NCBI RefSeq assembly: GCF_014270065.1
Contig: NZ_JACNME010000004.1
Coordinates: 186,001 to 250,000 of the forward strand
Direction: 5' to 3'
Length of the DNA: 64,000 nucleotides
Source: Quadrisphaera sp. RL12-1S
GTDB lineage: Bacteria > Actinomycetota > Actinomycetes > Actinomycetales > Quadrisphaeraceae
The notes under the pieces are model-generated. The model did not search any database. It had not been told where the DNA came from and was given only the letters and a program-made list of their open reading frames with translations. Shown in pieces: positions 51,837-64,000 of the stretch. How positions within the stretch are numbered: the stretch's first letter is position 1; each line of letters begins with the position of its first letter. A program made the translations under genes and the position numbers.

Positions 51837-54560
51837 GTGGAGACCGCCGAGATCCGCCGGCGCTGGCTCGACTTCTTCGAGGCGCGCGGCCACACCGTGG
51901 TGCCCAGCGCCTCGCTGATCAGCCCCGACCCGAGCCTGCTGTTCACGGTGGCCGGCATGGTGCCGTTCATCCCGTACCTCACGGGCCAGCAGACCCCGCC
52001 CTACCCGCGCGCCACGAGCGTGCAGAAGTGCGTGCGCACGCTCGACATCGACGAGGTCGGCAAGACCACGCGCCACGGCACGTTCTTCCAGATGAACGGC
52101 AACTTCTCCTTCGGCGACTACTTCAAGGAGGGGGCGATCTCCTACGCGTGGGAGCTCGTCACCACCCCGCAGTCGCAGGGGGGCTACGGCTTCGACCCCG
52201 ACAGCCTGTGGGCCACCGTCTACGTCGACGACGACGAGGCGCACCGCCTCTGGCAGACCGTCGCCGGCCTGCCGCCCGAGCGCATCCAGCGCCTGGGCAT
52301 GGAGGACAACTACTGGTCCACCGGGCAGCCCGGACCGGCCGGCCCGTGCTCGGAGATCTACGTCGACCGCGGCCCCGCCTACGGCCCCGACGGCGGTCCC
52401 GCCAACGACCCCGCGGGCGACCGGTACCTGGAGATCTGGAACCTCGTCTTCATGCAGTTCCAGCGCGGGGAGGGCCAGGGGAAGGACTTCCCCATCCTCC
52501 ACGAGCTGCCCAAGAAGAACATCGACACCGGCATGGGCCTGGAGCGCACCGCGCTGCTCCTGCAGGGCGTCGACAACATGTACGAGATCGACCAGGTCGC
52601 CCCCGTGCTGCGGCACGCCGCCGAGCTGGCCGGTGTCCGCTACGGCGCCGACCGGGACGCCGACGTGCGCCTGCGCGTGGTGGCCGACCACGTCCGCGCC
52701 TCCCTCATGCTCATGGGCGACGGCGTCACCCCCGGCAACGAGGGCGGCGGCTACGTGCTGCGCCGCCTCGTGCGGCGCGCGGTGCGCGCGATGCGCCTGC
52801 TCGGCGTGGACGCCCCGACGCTGCCGGAGCTGCTGCCGGTCTCCCTGGACGCCATGGCCCCGGCCTACCCCGAGCTGCGCGAGGGCTTCGGGCGCATCAG
52901 CGCCGTCGCCTACGCCGAGGAGGAGGCGTTCCGGCGCACCCTCGTCTCGGGCACCACCATCCTCGACACCGCCGTGGCGCAGGCCAAGAAGAGCTCCGCC
53001 TCCACCGGCGCCGCCGCCGTGCTGTCCGGAGAGCGCGCCTTCGAGCTGCACGACACCTTCGGCTTCCCCATCGACCTCACCCTGGAGATGGCCGCCGAGC
53101 AGGGCGTCTCGGTGGACGCCGACGGCTTCCGCCGCCTCATGACCGAGCAGCGCACCCGCGCCCGCGAGGACGCCCGCGCCAAGCGCGCCGGCCGCACGGA
53201 CACCGCCGGCTACCGGCAGGTGGCCGACGAGCTCGGGCGCGACGTGGACTTCGTCGGGTACGAGGTGCTCTCCGCGGAGGGCCGCGTGGTGGGCCTGCTG
53301 CGCGACGGCGCCGGCGTGCCCGTCGCCCTCGCCGGCGACGACGTCGAGCTGGTCCTGGACCGGACCCCCTTCTACGCCGAGAGCGGCGGCCAGCTGGCCG
53401 ACCGCGGGCGCCTCACCGTGACCGGCCCGACGGGCGTGCGCGCGGTGGTGGACGTCACCGACGTGCAGCGGCCCATCCCCGGCCTCAACGTCCACCACGC
53501 CACGGTGGTCTCCGGCGAGATAGCGGTCGGGGACCCGGTGGAGGCCGTCGTCGACGCGGGCCGCCGCCTGGCCGTGGCCCGCGCGCACACCGCCACGCAC
53601 CTGGTCCACCAGGGCCTGCGCGACGCGCTCGGCCCGGACGGCACGCGCCAGGCCGGGTCGGAGAACGCCCCCGGACGCCTGCGCTTCGACTACACCGCGC
53701 TGGCCGCGCCCACCCCGGCGCAGCTGGCCGACGTCGAGGCGGAGGTCAACACCTTCCTCGCCGACGACCTCGCCGTCACCACCACGGTCACCGACCCCGA
53801 GTCGGCGCGCCGCGCCGGCGCGCTGGCGTTCTTCGGGGACAAGTACGGCGACCGCGTGCGCATGGTCGGCATCGGCGAGTGGTCCAAGGAGCTGTGCGGC
53901 GGCACCCACGTGGAGCGCACCGGGCAGCTGGGCGTCGTCGCGCTGCTCGGGGAGCAGTCCATCGGCTCCGGCACCCGTCGTGTGGAGGCCCTCGTCGGCC
54001 CTGACGCCCACGCCCACCTGGCGCGGGAGTCCGCGCTGGTCAGCCAGCTGACGGGCCTGCTCAAGGTGCGCTCCGAGGAGCTGCCCGACCGCATCGCCAC
54101 CCTGCTCGACCAGCTCAAGGAGGCCGACCGCACCATCGCCGCGGCCCGCGCCAAGGAGGTCCTCGCGGCAGCGGGCGCCCTCGCCGCGGGCGCCGAGCTC
54201 GTGGGCGGCTCGGCCGCCGACGCGGTGCGCCTGGTGGCGACGAGCGCCGGCGAGGTGGCCTCCGCCGACGACCTGCGCACCCTCGCGCTCGACGTGCGGG
54301 GCCGCCTCGGTGAGTCCGCGTCCGTGGTCGCCGTCGGCGGCGTCGCGAAGGGCCGCCCCGTCGTGGTCATCGCCACCAGCCCCGCGGCCCGCGCGGCAGG
54401 GCTCAAGGCCGGTGCGCTCGTCCGCGTGGCCGCCACCGCCCTCGGCGGCGGCGGGGGCGGCAAGGACGACGTCGCGCAGGGCGGCGGCACCGACGCCCAG
54501 GCGCTGCCCGCAGCCCTGGACGCCGTGCGCGACGCCGTGGCGTCGTCCGTCGGCGCCTGA
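51837..54560 (+). CDS. alaS: alanine-tRNA ligase
   Basis: A 907-residue class II enzyme. The catalytic domain opens [35 protein letters not shown] and the [13 protein letters not shown] motif are intact. The editing domain has [11 protein letters not shown] and [13 protein letters not shown], its zinc-binding residues. The C-terminal DHHA1-like domain is rich in Ala/Gly and ends [23 protein letters not shown] 51837 follows AGGAGGGGACCCCC, which is preceded by ACCACCAGACC repeats. Confidence 0.97.
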
Positions 54561-54594
54561 CCGGTCCTGAGGGACCTGACCCGGTGGAGCGCGC

Positions 54595-55071
54595 GTGAGG
54601 GACGGGGTCCGGCTCGGCGTGGACGTCGGGTCGGTCCGCGTCGGGCTCGCGGTCTGCGACCCGAGCGGCTCGATCGCCTCGCCCGTCGAGACGCTCAAGA
54701 GGGATCGCACGCAGCGCTCTGACCTGCGACGCATCGCAGCGGAGATCGCTGAGAGGGACGCCCTCGAGGTGGTCATCGGGCTGCCGGTCTCGCTCTCCGG
54801 ACGTGAAGGTCCAGCGGCGGCGGCTGTGCGTGACTACGCTGCTGACCTGGCAGGCATGGTCGCGCCGGTGCCGGTGCGGCTCGTGGACGAGCGGTTGAGC
54901 ACGGTCAGCGCCCACCAGGCGCTGACAGCCTCCGGGCGGTCCGGCCGTCGCCACCGAGAGGTGGTCGACCAGGTCGCGGCGGTGCTCATCCTGCAGACGG
55001 CCCTTGACGCTGAGCGCGCCACGGGCCGGCCGCCGGGGTCGACCGTCGACCCCGGGCCCGCCCCGGGCTGA
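54595..55071 (+). CDS. ruvX: Holliday junction resolvase-like RuvX/YqgF
   Basis: A 158-residue RNase H-fold protein needed for 16S rRNA 5' maturation in several bacteria. RLGVDVGSVRVGLAVCDPSG is the first motif, VIGLPVSLSGREGPAAAAV the second, and RLVDERLSTVSAHQAL and HREVVDQVAAVLILQ complete the site. The final 20 residues are variable. GTG 54595 starts at the homology boundary. Codon bias in the central part is less extreme in GC3 than its neighbours. Confidence 0.93.
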   Translation: MRDGVRLGVDVGSVRVGLAVCDPSGSIASPVETLKRDRTQRSDLRRIAAEIAERDALEVVIGLPVSLSGREGPAAAAVRDYAADLAGMVAPVPVRLVDERLSTVSAHQALTASGRSGRRHREVVDQVAAVLILQTALDAERATGRPPGSTVDPGPAPG

Positions 55072-55105
55072 GGCCGGGGGCGGGAGGAAGGGGCTGTGCG
55101 CGTCG

Positions 55106-56284
55106 ATGGCTGGCTTGTCGCTGGAGGACCTGCCGGGGACCCCGGAGTCCCGCTCGTCCTCCGGGGACGGCGCGGGCGGGGGCTCGCGGTCGTCGCAGCG
55201 CCTGGCCGAGAAGGGTGACCGCCAGCGGCGCCGCAAGCGCCGCCGCACCGTCACCCTCGTGGTGCTCGCCGTGTGCGCGGTGCTCTTCGGGGCCTCCGCG
55301 GTGCTCGTGGGAGGTCAGGTCAAGGGCCTCGTGGCCAGCATGACCGAGAGCGGGGACTACGAGGGCGAGGGCAGCGGGACCGTGACGGTGCAGGTCCCCG
55401 ACGGGGCCTCCGGCCGCACGATCGCGTCGGTGCTCGCCGAGGCCGGCGTGGTGAAGACCCCCGGCGCCTTCGTCTCGGCGGCCGCCGCGGACCCGAAGTC
55501 GGCGGGCATCCAGCCCGGCACGTACCAGCTGCGCAAGGAGATGTCCGGCGCCTCGGCGCTGGCGCTCCTGCTCGACCCCTCCTCGCGCACCTCCTGGAAG
55601 GTGCAGGTGCCCGAGGGCTACACGGCCTCGCAGATCTACCAGCGCCTCTCGGAGTCCACCGGCCTGCCCGTCTCCGCCTACGAGGCGGCCGCCAAGGACC
55701 CGCAGCTCGGCCTGCCCGCAGACGCGGGGGGCGCCGTCGAGGGCTACCTCTTCCCCGCCACGTACACCTTCGACCCGGGCACCACGGCCCTGCAGCAGCT
55801 GCAGCAGATGGTGCAGCGCACCACCAAGGCCATGGACGACGTCGGGTTCCCCGCCGACGCCTCCGAGCGCCACCGCCTCATGACCGAGGCGAGCCTGGTG
55901 CAGAAGGAGGGGGCCAACGCCGAGGACATGGCCAAGGTGGCGCGCGTCATCGAGAACCGCGTCGCCGCGGGCCAGCCGCTGCAGTTCGACACCACGGTCA
56001 ACTACGCCAACGGCAAGACCGGCCTGACCACCACCGACGCCGACCGCGCGAACCCCTCGCCGTACAACACCTACCTGCACCCCGGTCTGCCGCCGGGCCC
56101 CATCGCCTCGCCCGGCGAGGACGCCATGCGCGCGGTGCTCGACCCCACCCCGGGAGACTGGCTGTACTTCGTGGTGGTCAACCCCTCCACGGGTGAGACG
56201 AAGTTCGCGGCCACCTTCGCCGAGCACCAGCAGAACGTGGCCGAGTTCCAGGCGTGGCTGCGCGCCAACCCGCAGCAGGGGTGA
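55106..56284 (+). CDS. mltG: endolytic transglycosylase MltG
   Basis: A 392-residue YceG-family enzyme that cuts nascent peptidoglycan strands. The cytoplasmic N-terminus is basic (RQRRRKRRRTV), and one membrane segment lies at about 49-70. The extracytoplasmic part has a LysM-like region (VPDGASGRTIASVLAEAGVV) and the catalytic core with EGYLFPATYTF, EASLVQKEGANAEDMAKVAR (catalytic Glu), and LHPGLPPGPIASPGEDAMRA. ATG 55106 is the only suitable start. GTGA overlap with aroE. Confidence 0.93.
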   Translation: MAGLSLEDLPGTPESRSSSGDGAGGGSRSSQRLAEKGDRQRRRKRRRTVTLVVLAVCAVLFGASAVLVGGQVKGLVASMTESGDYEGEGSGTVTVQVPDGASGRTIASVLAEAGVVKTPGAFVSAAAADPKSAGIQPGTYQLRKEMSGASALALLLDPSSRTSWKVQVPEGYTASQIYQRLSESTGLPVSAYEAAAKDPQLGLPADAGGAVEGYLFPATYTFDPGTTALQQLQQMVQRTTKAMDDVGFPADASERHRLMTEASLVQKEGANAEDMAKVARVIENRVAAGQPLQFDTTVNYANGKTGLTTTDADRANPSPYNTYLHPGLPPGPIASPGEDAMRAVLDPTPGDWLYFVVVNPSTGETKFAATFAEHQQNVAEFQAWLRANPQQG

Positions 56285-57168
56285 GCGTGCAGGCCGCCGT
56301 CTGGGGCTCACCGATCGCCCACTCCCTGTCCCCGGCCCTGCACCGGGCCGCCTACGCCGAGCTCGGCCTGGACTGGGCGTACGGCCGGCGCGAGGTGGAC
56401 GCCGCCGCGCTGCCCGCCGCCGTCGCCGAGCTCGACGAGAGCTGGGCGGGGGTGTCGCTGACCATGCCGCTCAAGCAGGCCGTGCTGCCCCTGCTGGCGC
56501 AAGCCTCGGAGCTGGCGCTGGCCGTGGGCGCCGTGAACACGCTGCTGCCGGTCCCCGGGCGCCCCGGCGCGTGGCGCGGGGAGAACACGGACGTGCACGG
56601 CGTCGTCGCCGCCCTCGCCGAGGCGGGGGTGCAGCGGGCCGAGTCGGCCGCGGTGCTGGGCGGTGGGGCGACGGCCGCGTCCGCGGTCGCCGCGCTGGCG
56701 CAGCTGGGCGTCGCCGAGCCGGTGGTGCTGGTCCGCTCCGTGGAGCGCGCCCGGGCGCTGCTCGACGTCGCCGAGCGCCTCGGGGTGCGGGTGCGCCTGC
56801 AGCCCTGGGGGGACGCCGGGCACGCCGCCGCGGTCCTGGCGGGCTGCGGCGCGGTGGTCTCGACGGCACCGGCCGGAGCCGCCGACGCCGTCGCCGCTGC
56901 ACTGGTCGACAGCGGTGCGCGACCGGCGGGAGCCCTCCTCGACGTCGTCTACGCCCCCTGGCCCACAGCCCTGGCCCGGGCGTGGGACCGGCTCGGCGCG
57001 CCCGTCGTCGGCGGCTTCTCGATGCTCGTGCACCAGGCCGAGCGCCAGGTCGAGCTCATGACCGGGCGCGAGGCCCCGCTGGAGGCCATGCGCACCGCCG
57101 GCGAGGCGGCCATGGCCGCCACCCCGGACGACGACGAGGACGCGGCCTCCCGCCTCGTCAGCCGCTGA
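56281..57168 (+). CDS. aroE: shikimate dehydrogenase
   Basis: A 295-residue enzyme reducing 3-dehydroshikimate in aromatic amino acid synthesis. WGSPIAHSLSPALHRAAY is the substrate motif, VSLTMPLKQAVLPL has the catalytic Lys, NTDVHGVVAAL the Asp, and VLGGGATAASAVAAL the NADP-binding loop. Length is slightly more than usual. GTG 56281 overlaps the mltG stop. In many actinobacteria a pilus or aroCKB cluster follows, as here. Confidence 0.95.
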   Translation: MSVQAAVWGSPIAHSLSPALHRAAYAELGLDWAYGRREVDAAALPAAVAELDESWAGVSLTMPLKQAVLPLLAQASELALAVGAVNTLLPVPGRPGAWRGENTDVHGVVAALAEAGVQRAESAAVLGGGATAASAVAALAQLGVAEPVVLVRSVERARALLDVAERLGVRVRLQPWGDAGHAAAVLAGCGAVVSTAPAGAADAVAAALVDSGARPAGALLDVVYAPWPTALARAWDRLGAPVVGGFSMLVHQAERQVELMTGREAPLEAMRTAGEAAMAATPDDDEDAASRLVSR

Positions 57169-57255
57169 CGCCCAGCGCTCAAGCCCCCCGCCCGCCGCGC
57201 CGATGGGACGCAGGACGGGAGGGCTGTGCCCTCGGTGCGTGAGCAGGAGGACCGC

Positions 57256-58605
57256 GTGAGCAGCTGGAGCGGTGGGACGGGCGACGACTTCGGCGTCACG
57301 TGGAGCGGCGCCGACGGCTCCACCACCGCCGCGCACCCCGCGGTGGCTGCCCCGGCTGCGGGTCCCGCTGCGGTTCCGGCGGCGACGTGGCACCCGTCCT
57401 CCCTGCTCCAGGACGACCCGCTCCTGCCGCCGCCCGCGCGCACGCCCGACCCCGGGCACCCCGCGGTCTCCGTGCCGGTGCAGCACGCACCGGAGCAGCC
57501 CCGGGCCGGTGTCGGTGGTGGTGCCGCTGACGACGAGTCCGTGCTGGACATCACGGCGGTGCTGCGGGCCATGCTGGCCACCGGCGCCTCCGACCTGCAC
57601 CTCACGGCGGGGGCCCCGCCCACCATCCGGCTCCACGGTGGACTGCGCCCGCTGGAGGGGTTCGAGGTGCTCAGCGGCGCCGTCCTGCAGCGCAGCCTCT
57701 TCGGGATGCTCACGCAGAAGCAGCGCGCTCGCTTCGAGGAGGACCTGGAGCTCGACTTCGCGCACTCCGTCCCCGGCCGGGGGCGCTTCCGCGTCAACGT
57801 CTACCGCCAGCGGGAGTCCCTCGGTGCCGCGTTCCGCGTGATCCCCGCGGAGATCAAGCCCCTGGACACCCTCGGCGTGCCGCCGTCGGTGGCGCACTTC
57901 GCCACGCTGCCGCGCGGCCTCGTGCTCGTCACCGGTCCCACCGGGTCAGGCAAGTCGACCACGCTCGCAGCCCTGGTGGACCTGGCCAACTCGACGCGCA
58001 GCGACCACATCATGACCGTCGAGGACCCCATCGAGTTCCTCCACCGCCACAAGAAGTGCCTGGTCAACCAGCGCGAGGTGGGGGAGGACACCCACTCCTT
58101 CGCCACCGCCCTCAAGCACGTGCTGCGCCAGGACCCCGACATCATCCTCGTCGGTGAGCTGCGCGACCTGGAGACCATCTCGGTGGCGCTCACCGCCGCC
58201 GAGACCGGTCACCTGGTGTTCGCCACCCTCCACACGCAGGACGCCGCGCAGACCATCGACCGCGTGGTGGACGTGTTCCCCGCCGAGCAGCAGGAGCAGG
58301 TCCGCACCCAGCTGGCCGGCGCCATCCAGGGCGTGGTCTGCCAGACGCTGTGCAAGACCGCGGACGGCAAGGGCCGCGCCGTGGCCACCGAGGTGATGAT
58401 GGCCACCCCGGCCATCCGCAACCTCATCCGCGAGGGCAAGACCCACCAGATCTACTCGGCCATGCAGGCCGGTGCCGCGCACGGCATGCACACCATGGAC
58501 CAGCACCTGGCCGACCTGGTGCGCCGCGGCCGCGTCACCCGCGGTGAGGCCGCGGAGAAGGCGCACAGCCCCGAGGACTTCGCCCGGCTGGTGGGCGGCG
58601 TCTGA
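57256..58605 (+). CDS. pilT: type IV pilus retraction ATPase PilT
   Basis: A 449-residue hexameric ATPase that drives pilus retraction. The N-terminal 100 residues are Pro/Ala-rich and disordered. The core has LDITAVLRAMLATGASDLHL, Walker A VTGPTGSGKSTTLAALV, the Asp box IMTVEDPIEFLH, Walker B DIILVGELRDLETI and the PilT-type C-terminal AIRNLIREGKTHQIYSAMQ. GTG 57256 follows GCAGGAGGACCGC; GTG 57226 has a closer, poorer site. No extension ATPase PilB is present in this stretch. It overlaps pilC by one base. Confidence 0.92.
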   Translation: MSSWSGGTGDDFGVTWSGADGSTTAAHPAVAAPAAGPAAVPAATWHPSSLLQDDPLLPPPARTPDPGHPAVSVPVQHAPEQPRAGVGGGAADDESVLDITAVLRAMLATGASDLHLTAGAPPTIRLHGGLRPLEGFEVLSGAVLQRSLFGMLTQKQRARFEEDLELDFAHSVPGRGRFRVNVYRQRESLGAAFRVIPAEIKPLDTLGVPPSVAHFATLPRGLVLVTGPTGSGKSTTLAALVDLANSTRSDHIMTVEDPIEFLHRHKKCLVNQREVGEDTHSFATALKHVLRQDPDIILVGELRDLETISVALTAAETGHLVFATLHTQDAAQTIDRVVDVFPAEQQEQVRTQLAGAIQGVVCQTLCKTADGKGRAVATEVMMATPAIRNLIREGKTHQIYSAMQAGAAHGMHTMDQHLADLVRRGRVTRGEAAEKAHSPEDFARLVGGV

Positions 58606-59825
58606 TGGCCACCTCGACGCTGTACGAGTACACGGTCCGCGACGCGGCCGGCAAGCTCGTCACCGGCAAGCTCGAGGCCGCCGACGAGGCGGCCCTGGTG
58701 AGCCGGCTGCGGGCGCAGGGCCACGCGCCGCTGTCGGTGAAGCCGGCCGGTGTCGGCCTCAACCGCGAGATCCGCCTGCCCGGCAGCGACCGGGTGGCGC
58801 TGAAGGACCTCGCTGTGATGTCCCGCCAGTTCGCCACCATGATCAGCTCGGGGCTGTCGCTGCTGCGGGCGCTGACCATCCTGTCCGACCAGACGCAGAA
58901 CAAGGCGCTGGCCAAGGTGCTCGGTGCGGTGTCCATCGACGTGCAGGGCGGCTCCTCGCTGTCCGTGGCGATGGCCAAGCACCCGCGCGTCTTCCCGCCC
59001 CTGATGATCAACATGACGCGCGCCGGCGAGGTCGGCGGCTTCCTCGAGGCGGTGCTGCTGCAGGTCGCTGACAACTTCGAGGCCGAGGTCAAGCTCCAGG
59101 CCAAGATCAAGTCAGCCATGGCCTACCCGGTGGTCGTCTTCGTCATCGCCATCCTGGCGGTGGTGGGCATGCTGCTCTTCATCGTGCCGATCTTCGCCGG
59201 CATGTTCGCCTCGCTCGGAGGGCAGCTGCCGCTGCCCACGCGGATCCTCGTGGTGCTCTCCGACGGACTGCGCGTCGGAGCGCCGGTCATCCTCGTGGTG
59301 GGCGTCGCCGGGGCGGTCGCGTGGATGCGCTGGAAGCACCACCCGAAGGTCCGGGGGGTCGTGGACCCCCTCAAGATCAAGCTGCCGGTGTTCGGCCAGC
59401 TCTTCGCCAAGATCGCTCTCAGCAGGTACACCCGCAACCTCGGGATGATGATGCGCTCGGGGGTGCCCATCCTCCAGAGCCTCGAGATCGTCGGGGCGAC
59501 CGCGGGCAACGTGGTGCTGGAGCGGGCCTCGGAGGACCTCCAGGAGAGCGTGCGGCGCGGTGACTCCATGGCGGCGCCGCTGACGCGGCACAAGATCTTC
59601 CCACCGATGGTCTCGCAGATGCTCGCGGTCGGTGAGGACACCGGAGCGCTGGACACGATGCTCGAGAAGGTGTCGCAGTTCTACGACCAGGAGGTCGAGG
59701 CGACCACCGACGCCCTCACGAGCCTCATCGAGCCGCTCATGATCGCCGTCCTCGGCAGCATCATCGGCGGCATGATCATCGCGCTGTACATGCCGATCTT
59801 CTCGGTGTTCAACCTCATCAAGTGA
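58605..59825 (+). CDS. pilC: type IV pilus inner membrane platform protein PilC
   Basis: A 406-residue polytopic platform protein (T2SF domain twice). YEYTVRDAAGKLVTGKLEAA, then LAVMSRQFATMISSGLSLLR begin the first repeat, and ALSRYTRNLGMMMRSGVPIL the second. KIKSAMAYPVVVFVIAILAV and the final LYMPIFSVFNLI are membrane parts. It joins the ATPases to the pilin base. ATG 58605 overlaps the pilT stop. A stem-loop follows. Confidence 0.95.
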   Translation: MATSTLYEYTVRDAAGKLVTGKLEAADEAALVSRLRAQGHAPLSVKPAGVGLNREIRLPGSDRVALKDLAVMSRQFATMISSGLSLLRALTILSDQTQNKALAKVLGAVSIDVQGGSSLSVAMAKHPRVFPPLMINMTRAGEVGGFLEAVLLQVADNFEAEVKLQAKIKSAMAYPVVVFVIAILAVVGMLLFIVPIFAGMFASLGGQLPLPTRILVVLSDGLRVGAPVILVVGVAGAVAWMRWKHHPKVRGVVDPLKIKLPVFGQLFAKIALSRYTRNLGMMMRSGVPILQSLEIVGATAGNVVLERASEDLQESVRRGDSMAAPLTRHKIFPPMVSQMLAVGEDTGALDTMLEKVSQFYDQEVEATTDALTSLIEPLMIAVLGSIIGGMIIALYMPIFSVFNLIK

Positions 59826-59843
59826 CCCTCCGTCACTGACCTC

Positions 59844-59879
59844 CGCAGGGCGCTCACCGACCGTGGTGGGCGCCCTGCG
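59844..59879 (+). terminator. terminator after pilC
   Basis: CGCAGGGCGCTCACC (59844-59858) pairs with 59865-59879 (one wobble) around a GACCGT loop. It splits the pilTC transcript from pilA. Confidence 0.7.
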
Positions 59880-59996
59880 CCGTCCGGGTGAGCGGGCGTT
59901 TGGCCGGTCAAGGGGTGCTCCCCGGTGTCGATACCAGGACTGCAACGGGGGCGTGCGGGGGTCGCGCGTCCAGGACTCGAGAAGGGGGAGCTGGCC

Positions 59997-60479
59997 ATGA
60001 TGGCTCGCATCCGCAAGGCCATGGAGGAGAAGGACCAGGGCTTCACCCTGATCGAGCTCCTCGTCGTCATGATCATCATCGGCATCCTCGCGGCGATCGC
60101 TGTGCCGGTGTTCCTCAACCAGCGCCAGAAGGCCGTGGACAGCAGCATCAAGTCCGACCTGCGCACGGTGGCGCAGAGCGCCGAGACGTCGATGGTCGAC
60201 ACGCAGATCTATCCGGCCAGCGCGAACAGCACCAATCCCTCGAGCGGGGCAAACCAGATCACGATCGGCACCGCCACCATCACGTTGAGCTCAGGCAACG
60301 TCATCGCCTACAAGCAGAGCTCGGACAAGGCCAGTTACTGCGTGGTGGGCTCCAATGCGCGAGCGTCCGCCACTGGTGCCACCGGTTCGACGGCCGGCAC
60401 CTTCTACTACTACTCCAGCCTCAACGGTGGTCTGGGCGGATCGGCTGTGCTCGCCTCCGCCCTTCCTGCCGGCTGCTGA
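59997..60479 (+). CDS. pilA: type IVa major pilin-like PilA
   Basis: A 160-residue prepilin. The leader MMARIRKAMEEKDQG is cut before Phe16 in GFTLIELLVVMIIIGILAAI, with Glu at +5 and a 22-residue membrane helix. NQRQKAVDSSIKSDLRTVAQ is the start of the pilin head. It is Ser/Thr/Gly/Ala-rich, with a disulfide-prone Cys near residue 119 and at the C-terminus (LPAGC). Size and layout fit a major pilin. ATG 59997 follows GGGGAG. Its own terminator sits right behind it. Confidence 0.93.
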   Translation: MMARIRKAMEEKDQGFTLIELLVVMIIIGILAAIAVPVFLNQRQKAVDSSIKSDLRTVAQSAETSMVDTQIYPASANSTNPSSGANQITIGTATITLSSGNVIAYKQSSDKASYCVVGSNARASATGATGSTAGTFYYYSSLNGGLGGSAVLASALPAGC

Positions 60480-60487
60480 TGTGGCTC

Positions 60488-60519
60488 GACAGGCCCGCAC
60501 CTCCGGGTGCGGGCCTGTC
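60488..60519 (+). terminator. pilA terminator
   Basis: GACAGGCCCGCACC (60488-60501) pairs perfectly with GGTGCGGGCCTGTC (60506-60519), a 14-base-pair stem with a TCCG loop, eight bases after the stop codon. Confidence 0.85.
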
Positions 60520-60582
60520 GTTCGTCACCCGGAGCTGTTACCCGTCGAGGAACGAGCCGAGACGCACAGACGAGGAGGAACC

Positions 60583-61524
60583 ATGAACGATGCAGCTGGG
60601 ACTGCGCTCCGCGGCGACGATGCCGTGGACGATGGCTTCACCCTCGTCGAGGTGGTCGTCGCCCTCGGGCTGCTCGGCATCATCGCCACCGCCACCCTCG
60701 GCTTCTTCATCTCGGGCGTGCGCACCTCCACCGACCTCCAGCGCCGCCAGGTCGCCGTCGCCCTGGCCAACGCCGCCGTCGAGGACTCCCGGCGGCTGCC
60801 GGTCACCATGCAGTCCACGACGGTGAACGGCACCACCACCACGTGGCCGCTCCTGGTCAAGGGGCGGCCCCAGGCCGACGTCACCACCCAGTGGGCCAGC
60901 GCTCCGTCCTCGGTCACCTCGACCACCTTCCCGGCCTCCGACCCCTCGGCGACGACGCCCGCAGCGGCGCTGGCGCCCCTGTCGTCGACGAGCACCGTGG
61001 GCAGCGCCTCCTACACCACCTCCGTGGTGATCGGCACGTGCTACCGGCTGCGCTCCACAGCGAGCGCCCCCTGCGACCAGGCGGGACGCGCCCGCTCGGC
61101 GACGCCGCCCGCGGGCTACGAGGAGCTGGTCCGCATCAGCGCGACGACGTCGTGGGGGACCGCCCTGGACTGCGCGAGCGGCACGTGCTCGTACACCGCG
61201 AGCGTGCTCGTCGACACCAGTCCCGACCCGCTGTGGAACACCAGCGGCGGTCGTGCCGTCGACGACGTCGCCTCGGCCGCGAAGGGCACCACCGTGGAGC
61301 TCAACGTGCTCGCCAACGACACCATGATTCCGGCGGCGAACAACCCGGTCACCGTCGTCTCCACGCCTGCTGGCATGACCGCGTCGGCCGACGCGAACGG
61401 CAGGATCCTCCTGACCGTGCCCGCCTCGGCGAGCACCGGCACGGTGGTGCTCACGTACTCCGTGCGCGATGCGTACGGGGCTACGTCCAACACGGCCAGC
61501 GTGCAGATCACGGTGACGCAGTGA
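60583..61524 (+). CDS. PilV-like minor pilin with C-terminal Ig-like domain
   Basis: A 313-residue prepilin-like protein. The leader ends DDG, with cleavage before Phe19 in GFTLVEVVVALGLLGIIATA and Glu at +5. The head (about 50-210) is Thr/Ser-rich with two Cys pairs (residues 153/164 and 197/202). The last 90 residues start AVDDVASAAKGTTVELNVLA and NDTM, and continue LTYSVRDAYGATSNTASVQI. This is the tandem-95/cadherin-like Ig fold seen in bacterial adhesins. ATG 60583 follows CGAGGAGGAACC. It is the first gene of a three-gene overlap unit. Confidence 0.85.
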   Translation: MNDAAGTALRGDDAVDDGFTLVEVVVALGLLGIIATATLGFFISGVRTSTDLQRRQVAVALANAAVEDSRRLPVTMQSTTVNGTTTTWPLLVKGRPQADVTTQWASAPSSVTSTTFPASDPSATTPAAALAPLSSTSTVGSASYTTSVVIGTCYRLRSTASAPCDQAGRARSATPPAGYEELVRISATTSWGTALDCASGTCSYTASVLVDTSPDPLWNTSGGRAVDDVASAAKGTTVELNVLANDTMIPAANNPVTVVSTPAGMTASADANGRILLTVPASASTGTVVLTYSVRDAYGATSNTASVQITVTQ

Positions 61525-62177
61525 ACCGGCGCCCGCGGTGGTCCCCGCCGCTGCGCTCGAGCGGCGAGCCGGACGGAGACGAGGGCGTCACCCTGGTCGA
61601 GACGCTCGTCGCCATGAGCATCTTCTCGGTGGTGCTGACCATCTTCATGGCCGCCGTGCTGTCGATGACGACGAGCACGGGGCGCGTCAACGCCACCACG
61701 GACGCCGGCGACGGCGTGCGGGCGGCGTTCCTGAGGCTCGACCGGCAGGTGCGCTACGCCGACGCCATCAACCAGCCCGTGCAGAGCTCGAGCGGGAGCT
61801 GGTACGTGGAGTTCCGCACGTCCCAGCGCGCCGACGGCCAGCCCACGCTCTGCACCCAGTGGCGCTTCGACCCGTCCGCCCAGGTGCTGCAGCTCCGGTC
61901 GTGGGCGGACGGCCAGGCGCCGGCCTCCGCGTTCCAGACCATCACCACCGACGTGCTGCCCCCCGAGACCGCCGGCTCGTCCCCGTTCGTCGTGGAGAAG
62001 GCGGACGCGGACCACGCCAACCAGAAGCTCACGGTGGCGGTGTCGGCGGGGTCGGGTTCCGGCGCCTACGCGGGGAGGGCGTCCATGCAGACGTCGTTCG
62101 TGGCGCGCAACAGCTCGATGTCGTCTGCCAGCAACACGCCGGGCACCTCCGTGTGCCCGCAGGCGACACGACCGTGA
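61521..62177 (+). CDS. PilW/PulJ-like minor pilin
   Basis: A 218-residue prepilin-like protein. Its leader is long and basic, and cleavage is predicted after Gly22 in EGVTLVETLVAMSIFSVVLT, with Glu27 at +5 and a membrane helix following. The head has RAAFLRLDRQVRYADAINQP, a typical PilW/PulJ N-terminal helix, then Ser/Thr-rich strands and QTSFVARNSS. Cys residues are few. It overlaps the preceding and next genes by four bases each. It likely belongs to the priming or tip complex. Confidence 0.85.
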   Translation: MNRRPRWSPPLRSSGEPDGDEGVTLVETLVAMSIFSVVLTIFMAAVLSMTTSTGRVNATTDAGDGVRAAFLRLDRQVRYADAINQPVQSSSGSWYVEFRTSQRADGQPTLCTQWRFDPSAQVLQLRSWADGQAPASAFQTITTDVLPPETAGSSPFVVEKADADHANQKLTVAVSAGSGSGAYAGRASMQTSFVARNSSMSSASNTPGTSVCPQATRP

Positions 62178-63859
62178 CCCGCCGACCGACTCGAGGGGTG
62201 CGCATGTTCCGCTCCGCTGTGCGACACCTGCGAGCCCGCGCCGCGACGGGGGTGTCCGGTGGTCCCGACGGTCCCGACGCCGGCGCGGCCCTGCTCACGG
62301 TCGTCCTGCTGATGTTCGTCGTCATGGCGCTCGCCACGCTGGTCCTCGGAGCCGTGGTCAGCCAGGTCGGCCCGACGCAGGCCACCCAGCAGAGCACCCA
62401 GGTGGTCTTCGCCGCGGAGACCGGCCTGCAGACCACGCTCTCCCAGCTGCGCACGAGCACGGGCACCACCGGAGCGGGGCAGCTCAGCGCCCTGCCGTGC
62501 TCGGTCTCGGACAGCGTGCCCAGCAGCACCGGTGCGCTGTCCTTCACCGCGCGGGTCACGTACTTCACCCAGGACCCGTCCGGCAAGGACGCCACCTGGC
62601 TGAAGGCCAACCGCATCCCGCCGTGCACCGGGGAGGCGACCGGTCCCACCGCCGCCGGTGCCGCCATGACGACGCAGCCCGCCTTCGCCCTGCTGAGCGT
62701 CACCGGGACCGACAGCGGCAGCGGGGCCCGGGTGCACTCCCGCTCGCTGCTGGCCCAGTACGCGTTCAGCGTCAGCAACCGCAACATCCCCGGCGGCGTG
62801 CTCTTCACCGCGACCAACCAGGCGTGCCTGCAGGCCACCTCCGACACCGCCGGATCGACGATCACCTACGCACCGGGCACCGGCTGCTCCGCCGACACAC
62901 CCACCCAGCGCTGGGTCTACGACACCGGCTACCATCTGGCGCTCGCGTCCACCATCACCACCACGACGACGACGGCGCAGAACGGCACGCAGACCACCAC
63001 CACGAGCGCCCTGTGCATCACCCAGCCGGACCTGAGCGCGACTGACCGCACGGTGACCCTGCAGGCCTGCACCCTGGACTCGCGCAACCCGATGCAGCTG
63101 TGGAGCTACGAGGGCGGGGGCCACTTCCGAGGGCAGAACGCGGACAACACCAACTACGGGAGCAACTGCCTCTACGCCGGCCACACCTACCTGGCGGGTG
63201 GCGACGTGCTCCAGGCCGGCGGCGACAGCACCTGCTCGTCGTCGACGCAGGACTGGGGCTCCTTCAGCCCCGAGGCGCGGGTGGGCGCCGGTGCGGCGTC
63301 GATGCAGACGTCGCAGATCGTCAACTACAAGCAGTTCGGGCGCTGCGCCGACGTCACCAACCAGAACTCCGGCTACAGCTACATGATCCTCTACCCGTGC
63401 AAGCAGGACCCCAGCGGCGGGACCAAGCTCAACTGGAACCACCGCTGGTACTACGGCGCCGAGAGCGGCACCGCCAACGAGCCGAGCGGTGCTGACGGCA
63501 TGTCCACGCGGATCCGCATCCGCGTGAACAACGACCCGAACCAGACGCTGTGCCTCACCACGCCCTCGGCGGCGGCGACCCCCGCGTACGTGGTCTTCCG
63601 CACCTGCGACAACACGGCCTCCCAGCAGTACACGCGCTTCTACACCACCGGCAGCTACGCCAGCAGCTACACGTTCGTCACCTCGGACGGCCGCTGCCTC
63701 GGCATCGGCCCCCAGCAGCAGCCCGGCGGTGGCGGCGTGTACTGGTCGACGATCATCGCCGACACCTGCTCCGGCGGCCCCGACCAGAAGTGGAACGCCC
63801 CGCCCACGGCGCTCGACTCCAGCGTGACCCGCCAGCTCGAGACCTCCACCGGGTCGTGA
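62174..63859 (+). CDS. PilX-like minor pilin with six QxW beta-trefoil lectin repeats
   Basis: A 561-residue protein. The N-terminus has a membrane segment (about 37-61, AGAALLTVVLLMFVVMALAT) of PilX type and no Glu at +5, as in GspK-like tip proteins. From residue 210 there are six blocks of the form C...C...QxW: Cys218 to Trp247, Cys281 to Trp310, Cys332 to Trp361, Cys391 to Trp425, Cys460 to Phe489 and Cys508 to Trp540. This is two complete ricin-type beta-trefoils. Their common ligand is sugar. GTG 62174 overlaps the PilW-like stop; ATG 62204 is a possible alternative. Confidence 0.88.
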   Translation: MTRRPTRGVRMFRSAVRHLRARAATGVSGGPDGPDAGAALLTVVLLMFVVMALATLVLGAVVSQVGPTQATQQSTQVVFAAETGLQTTLSQLRTSTGTTGAGQLSALPCSVSDSVPSSTGALSFTARVTYFTQDPSGKDATWLKANRIPPCTGEATGPTAAGAAMTTQPAFALLSVTGTDSGSGARVHSRSLLAQYAFSVSNRNIPGGVLFTATNQACLQATSDTAGSTITYAPGTGCSADTPTQRWVYDTGYHLALASTITTTTTTAQNGTQTTTTSALCITQPDLSATDRTVTLQACTLDSRNPMQLWSYEGGGHFRGQNADNTNYGSNCLYAGHTYLAGGDVLQAGGDSTCSSSTQDWGSFSPEARVGAGAASMQTSQIVNYKQFGRCADVTNQNSGYSYMILYPCKQDPSGGTKLNWNHRWYYGAESGTANEPSGADGMSTRIRIRVNNDPNQTLCLTTPSAAATPAYVVFRTCDNTASQQYTRFYTTGSYASSYTFVTSDGRCLGIGPQQQPGGGGVYWSTIIADTCSGGPDQKWNAPPTALDSSVTRQLETSTGS

Positions 63860-63863
63860 CGGC

Positions 63864-64000
63864 GTGAGCGCGCTCCTGAGCGCCCCGGTGGACGTCTTCG
63901 CCGCGCTCGCGGCGGGGCTGGTCGGGCTGGCCGTCGGCTCCTTCCTCAACGTGGTGGTCTGGCGGGTGCCGCGCGGCCTGTCGGTGGTGCGGCCCGCCAG
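63864..64000 (+). CDS. pilD: prepilin peptidase, N-terminal part (cut by window end)
   Basis: Forty-five residues are visible. GTG 63864 starts VSALLSAPVDVFAALAAGL, followed by VGLAVGSFLNVVVWRVPRGL and SVVRPA. The GSFLNVVVWRVPRG motif is the classic start of the bifunctional leader peptidase/methylase. It lies four bases after the PilX-like gene, so it belongs to the same operon and would process the pilins upstream. The rest is outside the window. Confidence 0.9.
   Translation, partial: MSALLSAPVDVFAALAAGLVGLAVGSFLNVVVWRVPRGLSVVRPA

What the first reader, a model, noticed from the sequence alone, without database searches (positions are those of the whole stretch)
62174..63859. PilX-like pilus protein carrying two complete beta-trefoil lectin domains
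The sequence shows a PilX-type N-terminal membrane helix followed by six regularly spaced C...C...QxW blocks (the fifth ends in Phe instead of Trp). A beta-trefoil needs three such blocks, so six make two trefoils. Ricin-type trefoils bind sugars. A tip-located minor pilin with two of them would make a sugar-binding pilus. I know of type IV pilus adhesins with lectin-like folds, such as PilC/PilY1 and PilA variants, but not this arrangement in actinobacteria.
Basis: partly seen in the sequence, partly recalled or inferred. Interest (0 to 1): 0.78.

Follow-up and report, generated by a model that had tools for sequence, protein, structure and literature searches.

The report
Sugar-binding-type tip pilin, swappable head
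A soil actinobacterium makes a hair-like pilus whose probable tip protein ends in two sugar-binding-type (ricin-like) domains, and its relatives carry at the same chromosomal spot either this head or quite different ones, so the tip looks like an exchangeable gripping tool.

Summary
Window 62204-63859 encodes a 551-residue minor pilin-like protein with six C...C...QxW-type blocks in two sets of three. Each set alone passes Pfam's Ricin_B_lectin cut-off (31.6 and 40.4 bits against 29); 20,000 shuffles gave at most three blocks. The gene lies between pilT-pilC-pilA-pilV-pilW and pilD-pilM-pilN-pilO; relatives occur across the class. The mature N-terminus lacks Glu5 and the gene sits in the GspK/PilK slot, so it most likely caps the pilus tip; the PilX_N model does not match. 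Only block 4 keeps the canonical sugar-site pair (Asp in C-x-D, Asn before [Q/H]-x-W), in 30 of 32 relatives against 0-1 for every other block: one probable working site. In 21 lectin-free T4P loci the same slot holds large pilins of three other kinds, and on a PilC tree the state changes at least six times: the tip set is repeatedly exchanged. Modular lectin pilins are known (S. sanguinis PilC); a Glu5-less capping pilin with two ricin trefoils and recurrent exchange I did not find described. Sugar binding and tip location are inferred.

The parts
62204..62284 (+). leader peptide (27 aa, basic, ends Gly) of the lectin pilin; alternative GTG start at 62174
   Evidence: translation; start choice from RBS GAGGGG and relatives
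62285..62362 (+). hydrophobic N-terminal helix, Thr at mature position 5 (no Glu5): capping-type (K) pilin signature
   Evidence: weak GspK/ComGG profile matches; PilX_N not matched
62363..62782 (+). pilin head, with invariant C99 and C141
   Evidence: alignment A2
62783..63277 (+). first ricin-type trefoil unit (blocks 1-3)
   Evidence: Ricin_B_lectin 31.6 bits alone, cut-off 29
62825..62914 (+). block 1 (C208...C228...QRW)
63014..63103 (+). block 2 (C271...C289...QLW); in three relatives a Laminin_G_3 domain is nested here
63167..63256 (+). block 3 (C322...C344...QDW), the least conserved block
63278..63823 (+). second ricin-type trefoil unit (blocks 4-6)
   Evidence: Ricin_B_lectin 40.4 bits alone for 63287-63823; low-confidence model of this part aligned mostly to solved beta-trefoils
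63344..63448 (+). block 4 (C381-A-D383...C399-K-Q...W411-N412-H-R-W415), the only block with the canonical sugar-site pair D+N; best-conserved of the segments compared
   Evidence: D 30/32, N 31/32, both 30/32 against 0-1 of 31-32 in other blocks
63551..63631 (+). block 5 (C450...C468...QQY)
63695..63793 (+). block 6 (C498...C522...QKW)
61521..62177 (+). pilW-like minor pilin (Glu5 present), overlaps the GTG start of the lectin gene
   Evidence: N_methyl 23 bits; weak gspI; found in all lectin loci whose contig reaches it
60583..61524 (+). pilV-like minor pilin with a C-terminal Big_9 Ig domain; long homologues only beside lectin pilins
   Evidence: Big_9 39.6 bits, N_methyl 25.4 bits
59997..60479 (+). 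major pilin pilA
   Evidence: N_methyl 38.1 bits
58605..59825 (+). pilC platform protein
   Evidence: T2SSF 216 bits; PilC-type models
57226..58605 (+). pilT retraction ATPase
   Evidence: TIGR01420 PilT family 485.6 bits
63864..64000 (+). start of pilD prepilin peptidase, followed outside the window by pilM, pilN, pilO
   Evidence: A24_N_bact/Peptidase_A24, PilM_2, PilN, PilO in L002

Best explanation
It is the capping (K-type, GspK/PilK position) minor pilin of a retractable type IVa pilus, with two ricin-type beta-trefoil units grafted on as head. PilD cleaves the leader after Gly27. The Glu5-less helix lets the protein sit first in the fibre, on top of PilW and PilV, so the head ends up at the tip. 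The second trefoil binds a sugar through block 4 (Asp383, Asn412, His413, Trp415); the first trefoil is mainly a spacer or supporting unit in this lineage. PilT retraction then pulls the cell to whatever glycan the tip holds (another cell, hypha, exopolysaccharide, plant or soil polymer). The pilV-pilW-lectin set is inherited as a block and exchanged against other tip sets at the same locus. Shown by sequence: pilin-like gene in a T4P locus, two ricin-type units, one conserved site, co-inheritance, exchange. Inferred: cleavage, tip location, sugar binding, adhesion.
For: Each half passes the Ricin_B_lectin cut-off; the whole protein scores 57.6 bits; 15 of 16 relatives match. T1 and T2 profiles align with each other (E = 4.1e-7, 92.7%) and not with the pilin part. 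T4P locus: PilT, PilC, N_methyl pilins, PilD, PilM, PilN, PilO around it. All 19 lectin-bearing genomes of 198 in the order are among the 76 with PilM. pilW lies next to it in every locus whose contig reaches that far. No Glu5 in any of 16 relatives, and the capping subunit of T4F tip complexes lacks Glu5 (PMC10191384). Block 4 keeps D and N in 30/32 relatives, other blocks 0-1, and has the highest pairwise identity of the compared segments, 0.48. Long pilV and pilW homologues go with the lectin. Same slot, other heads. At least six state changes on the PilC tree, nine by parsimony, shuffled mean 11.7.
Against: AlphaFold models are poor (mean pLDDT 42.6 and 39.9), so the fold is not shown by prediction. 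PilX_N and N_methyl profiles do not match the protein; the GspK match is far below its cut-off (18.6 against 130 bits). No binding data. Only one of six sites looks canonical, so the trefoils could serve as protein-protein scaffolds. The best extension-ATPase candidate lies on another contig (C3), so assembly of this pilus is inferred.
Confidence: 0.66

Rival explanations
1. The trefoils are structural: they bind a protein partner (for example PilV's Ig domain or PilW) or stabilise the tip complex, without recognising sugars. Beta-trefoils are common protein-binding scaffolds.
For: Five of six blocks lack the canonical Asp/Asn pair; pilV, pilW and the lectin are inherited together, as interacting partners would be.
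Against: Block 4 keeps exactly the sugar-contact pair in 30 of 32 relatives, and three relatives add a second lectin-type fold (Laminin_G_3) to the same protein.
Confidence: 0.2
2. A sugar-binding minor pilin that is spread along the shaft rather than at the tip, acting in aggregation as meningococcal PilX does.
For: Modular pilins could sit in the shaft if the linker is flexible (PMC8179133); some minor pilins are distributed along fibres (PMC10191384).
Against: It lacks Glu5, the mark of the capping subunit, and occupies the K slot between pilW and pilD in most loci.
Confidence: 0.1
3. The locus is a type II-secretion-like pseudopilus and the lectin is a cargo-gathering subunit rather than an adhesin.
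For: The K position and GspK-like N-terminus resemble T2SS.
Against: A PilT-family retraction ATPase (485.6 bits) and PilM (141 bits) are in the locus; actinobacteria have no outer membrane for a T2SS.
Confidence: 0.04

Closest known systems
Streptococcus sanguinis PilC (modular minor pilin with ConA-like lectin; PMC9934059)
   Same: Monoderm T4P; large minor pilin with a glycan-binding module grafted after the pilin part; proposed at the tip with partner minor pilins.
   Different: PilC has Glu5 and a concanavalin-type lectin after an Ig module in one protein; here the carrier is Glu5-less, the lectin is two ricin-type units, and an Ig (Big_9) domain is on the neighbouring pilin PilV.
Modular pilins surveyed by Raynaud et al. 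2021 (PMC8179133; 264 architectures)
   Same: Same design: functional domain grafted on a pilin for presentation.
   Different: That survey started from the IPR012902 (N_methyl) signature, whose Pfam model does not match this protein, so K-type carriers of this kind would tend to be missed. Its data set could not be read here.
GspK / PilK / ComGG capping minor (pseudo)pilins
   Same: No Glu5, bulky, last of the minor-pilin genes, weak N-terminal profile similarity.
   Different: GspK's extra domain is alpha-helical and inserted in the pilin sheet (PMC8179133); here the extra domains are C-terminal ricin-type units.
ComZ (minor pilin with beta-solenoid module, DNA-related; PMC8179133)
   Same: Large extra module on a minor pilin; some lectin-free loci here carry heads with weak solenoid-type matches.
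   Different: Different head; no direct sequence comparison was made.
Rv1419-family secreted ricin-type lectin of actinobacteria (NCBIfam NF052302)
   Same: Same lectin superfamily; 8 of 16 relatives match weakly.
   Different: Not a pilin and a single trefoil (own knowledge).
Zoospore type IV pili of Actinoplanes missouriensis (Kimura 2019, cited in PMC8325347)
   Same: Actinobacterial T4P required for adhesion to surfaces.
   Different: That paper is not held here; whether its locus has this lectin was not checked.

Membership tests
Ricin_B_lectin / CBM13 (PF00652) | profile match above the curated cut-off for each unit | tested here: met
   31.6 and 40.4 bits against 29
Ricin_B_lectin / CBM13 (PF00652) | three repeats per unit, each with two Cys and QxW | tested here: met
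   six blocks; block 4 has H for Q and block 5 Y for W in this member
Ricin_B_lectin / CBM13 (PF00652) | sugar-contact residues Asp (C-x-D) and Asn before QxW in at least one repeat | tested here: met
   block 4 only: 30 of 32 relatives; that these are the contact residues is established knowledge of ricin-type sites
Ricin_B_lectin / CBM13 (PF00652) | beta-trefoil fold | tested here: inconclusive
   AlphaFold pLDDT 42.6 and 39.9; best alignments of the second unit are mostly solved beta-trefoils at Z 7.8-8.8, in the range the tool calls middling
Ricin_B_lectin / CBM13 (PF00652) | binds carbohydrate | not testable with these tools
   needs a glycan array
PilX_N (PF14341) | N-terminal profile match | tested here: not met
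   no match at E <= 1 for this protein; one of 16 relatives at E = 0.041
K-type capping minor pilin (GspK/PilK/ComGG) | hydrophobic helix after a Gly-ending leader, no Glu5 | tested here: met
   sequence and alignment A2
K-type capping minor pilin (GspK/PilK/ComGG) | gene follows the other minor pilins and goes with the core T4P genes | tested here: met
   pilV-pilW-lectin-pilD-pilM-pilN-pilO
K-type capping minor pilin (GspK/PilK/ComGG) | GspK profile above cut-off | tested here: not met
   18.6 bits against 130, E = 0.0011; 9 of 16 relatives weakly, best 1.4e-5. I therefore say 'works like a K subunit', not 'is GspK'
K-type capping minor pilin (GspK/PilK/ComGG) | located at the pilus tip | not testable with these tools
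   needs imaging
Modular type IV pilin (PMC8179133) | pilin part plus a domain not specific to T4P | tested here: met
Modular type IV pilin (PMC8179133) | IPR012902/N_methyl signature used in that survey | tested here: not met
   PF07963 does not match this protein, while it matches pilA, pilV and pilW; the defining design (pilin part plus graft) does not itself require it

The most novel reading that the evidence does not exclude
Actinomycete type IV pili have an exchangeable tip: at one conserved locus the pilV-pilW-cap set is repeatedly replaced, giving lectin, two other large-head types and at least one more, so that a fixed motor and shaft are re-tooled for different targets by swapping a tip cassette.
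Probability: 0.5. Interest if true: 0.68.

Novelty: new variant of a known kind. Interest (0 to 1): 0.55.

Why it matters
How a rather uniform pilus machine does so many jobs is an open question in T4P biology; grafted modules are the current answer. This family gives a natural series: the same locus, motor and platform with different caps, some in close relatives (PilC 87% identical). It makes the tip-head hypothesis directly testable in soil bacteria, and it names one sugar site to mutate. Surveys based on the N_methyl signature would tend to miss Glu5-less carriers like this one.

Tried and rejected
Structure prediction: two AlphaFold jobs (full length, then both trefoils) on the five sequences the tool permits gave pLDDT 42.6 and 39.9; not used as evidence for the fold. 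The VIA alignment on the second model listed mostly beta-trefoil entries at Z about 8, which the tool calls middling; kept only as weak support. A viral contig scan and a plasmid protein search found no relatives: no sign of phage or plasmid carriage. A phmmer search of the PDB with the protein found nothing; the profile found ricin-type lectins and CBM13 xylanases weakly. PilY1 was sought in the own genome and not found, but the control genomes did not ring either, so absence is not shown. My first pilV coordinates (60576) were out of frame; corrected, and the pilV rows of the earlier calls are void. Literature: no paper in the held open-access library was found that describes a ricin-type head on a type IV pilin, but subscription papers and supplementary data sets could not be read.

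Full report
Observation. The coding frame 62174-63859 is open and conserved; ATG 62204 is the likelier start. The translation has a basic leader ending in Gly, a hydrophobic helix, a head with two invariant cysteines, then six cysteine-paired blocks. The block pattern appears six times; 20,000 shuffles of the same residues never gave more than three.

Domains. Pfam finds only Ricin_B_lectin, 57.6 bits. Cut in half, residues 194-358 score 31.6 and 362-540 score 40.4 bits against a cut-off of 29, and the halves of a relative score 32.7 and 33.3. The two halves' profiles match each other (E = 4.1e-7) and not the pilin part. Fifteen of 16 relatives match Ricin_B_lectin. A second look at the low-confidence model of the trefoil region listed mainly beta-trefoil entries at Z 7.8-8.8, in the range that the tool itself calls middling.

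Sugar site. In ricin-type repeats the sugar is held by an Asp just after the first Cys and an Asn just before the QxW, with an aromatic residue (established knowledge). Over 32 relatives both Asp and Asn are kept in block 4 in 30, and in the other five blocks in 0, 0, 0, 0 and 1. Block 4 is also the best conserved of the compared segments (mean pairwise identity 0.48 against 0.25-0.42), with a motif C-K-[QH]-x-P...W-N-[QH]-x-W. Blocks 1 and 2 keep the Asp alone in about a third of relatives (13 and 10 of 31). So I predict one working site per protein in this lineage. That it binds a sugar is inference.

Locus. Upstream are pilT (485.6 bits), pilC, pilA, pilV with a Big_9 Ig domain (39.6 bits) and pilW (coordinates of pilV corrected there). 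Downstream are pilD, pilM, pilN and pilO, and the whole lies between aroE and aroC. The best extension-ATPase candidate is on another contig. The lectin gene's mature N-terminus has Thr, not Glu, at position 5; a review states that the tip complex is capped by a subunit lacking Glu5 (PMC10191384). Nine of 16 relatives weakly match GspK (best 1.4e-5) and four ComGG, all below the cut-offs. I call it a K-type cap by position and sequence logic, not by family membership.

Spread. In 198 genomes of the order 21 match, 19 of them with the lectin part (the matches of G073 and G149 cover only the pilin part). All 19 are among the 76 genomes with PilM. A class-wide sample of 395 genomes adds relatives in five further families (the matches of G001 and G362 cover only the pilin part). 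Wherever the contig reaches it, pilW is the next gene upstream. pilD follows in most; in the loci read from family f35 pilV-pilW-lectin come after pilO, and in two loci (L055, L057) no core genes lie in the stretch read. A contig that ends can hide neighbours (L060, L068).

Exchange of the tip. I read 21 T4P loci that lack the lectin. In all, the gene just upstream of pilD encodes a large protein with a hydrophobic N-terminal stretch, 451-687 residues from that stretch on. By sequence they fall into a cluster of 13, a cluster of 7 and one single, none linked to the lectin. Weak Pfam matches (Bactofilin, an ice-binding-like adhesive domain, DUF4900) suggest solenoid-type heads for some; this is a lead. 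Long pilV homologues (214 residues or more) occur beside lectins in all 20 loci whose contig reaches pilV, and in none of the 21 others (107 residues at most). Long pilW homologues (186 or more) occur in the same 20 and in one of the others, with two intermediate cases. G073, of the same genus, has PilC 87%, PilT 85% and PilM 76% identical at the same locus but a different tip set. On a PilC tree of 35 loci the state lectin/other needs nine changes, at least six on well-supported branches, against a shuffled mean of 11.7. The 'other' loci were chosen as lectin-free, so the ratio of states is not a frequency; the number of changes is a quick-method estimate, and loss from an ancestor with several sets is possible, since L003 and L004 carry two tandem sets.

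Mechanism. Best supported: a tip cap with two ricin-type units, one probable working sugar site, on a retractable T4aP; a grappling hook with a sugar-binding tip. Shown: gene, domains, locus, conserved site, co-inheritance, exchange. Inferred: cleavage, tip location, sugar binding, adhesion. Rivals: protein-binding scaffold (0.2), shaft-distributed lectin (0.1), T2SS-like role (0.04).

Known or new. Modular pilins are a known class (PMC8179133) and a lectin pilin with measured glycan binding is known (PMC9934059). New here, as far as the held library shows, are the ricin-type double head, the Glu5-less carrier, and its repeated exchange at a fixed locus. I file it as a new variant of a known kind.

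Noticed in passing
L020 776-3064 (-), L021 1483-3726 (-), L031 658-2361 (-): In three genomes of one family (f15) a Laminin_G_3 (ConA-like lectin) domain, 56-59 bits, is nested inside block 2 of the first trefoil of this pilin: a second lectin-type fold inserted into a trefoil. In L031 the gene is split over two frames.
   Followed up: partly
window 60583-61524: The neighbouring PilV-like pilin carries a C-terminal bacterial Ig domain (Big_9, 39.6 bits), so a second minor pilin of the set is modular too.
   Followed up: partly
L003 1-8439 and L004 1-8222: Two tandem V-W-lectin-pilD sets in Quadrisphaera sp. INWT6 (L004) and a related MAG (L003). In L004 the upstream lectin gene and the downstream pilD appear spread over several frames.
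   Followed up: no
L067 8109-9878; L113 8236-9975; L115 8543-10012; L106 7199-9124: Large K-slot pilins with other heads at the same position; two clusters and one single. Their folds are unassigned.
   Followed up: partly
window 51837-64000 and beyond: The T4P cluster sits between housekeeping genes (alaS-ruvX-mltG-aroE ... aroC-aroK-aroB), a position shared by several actinomycete families.
   Followed up: no
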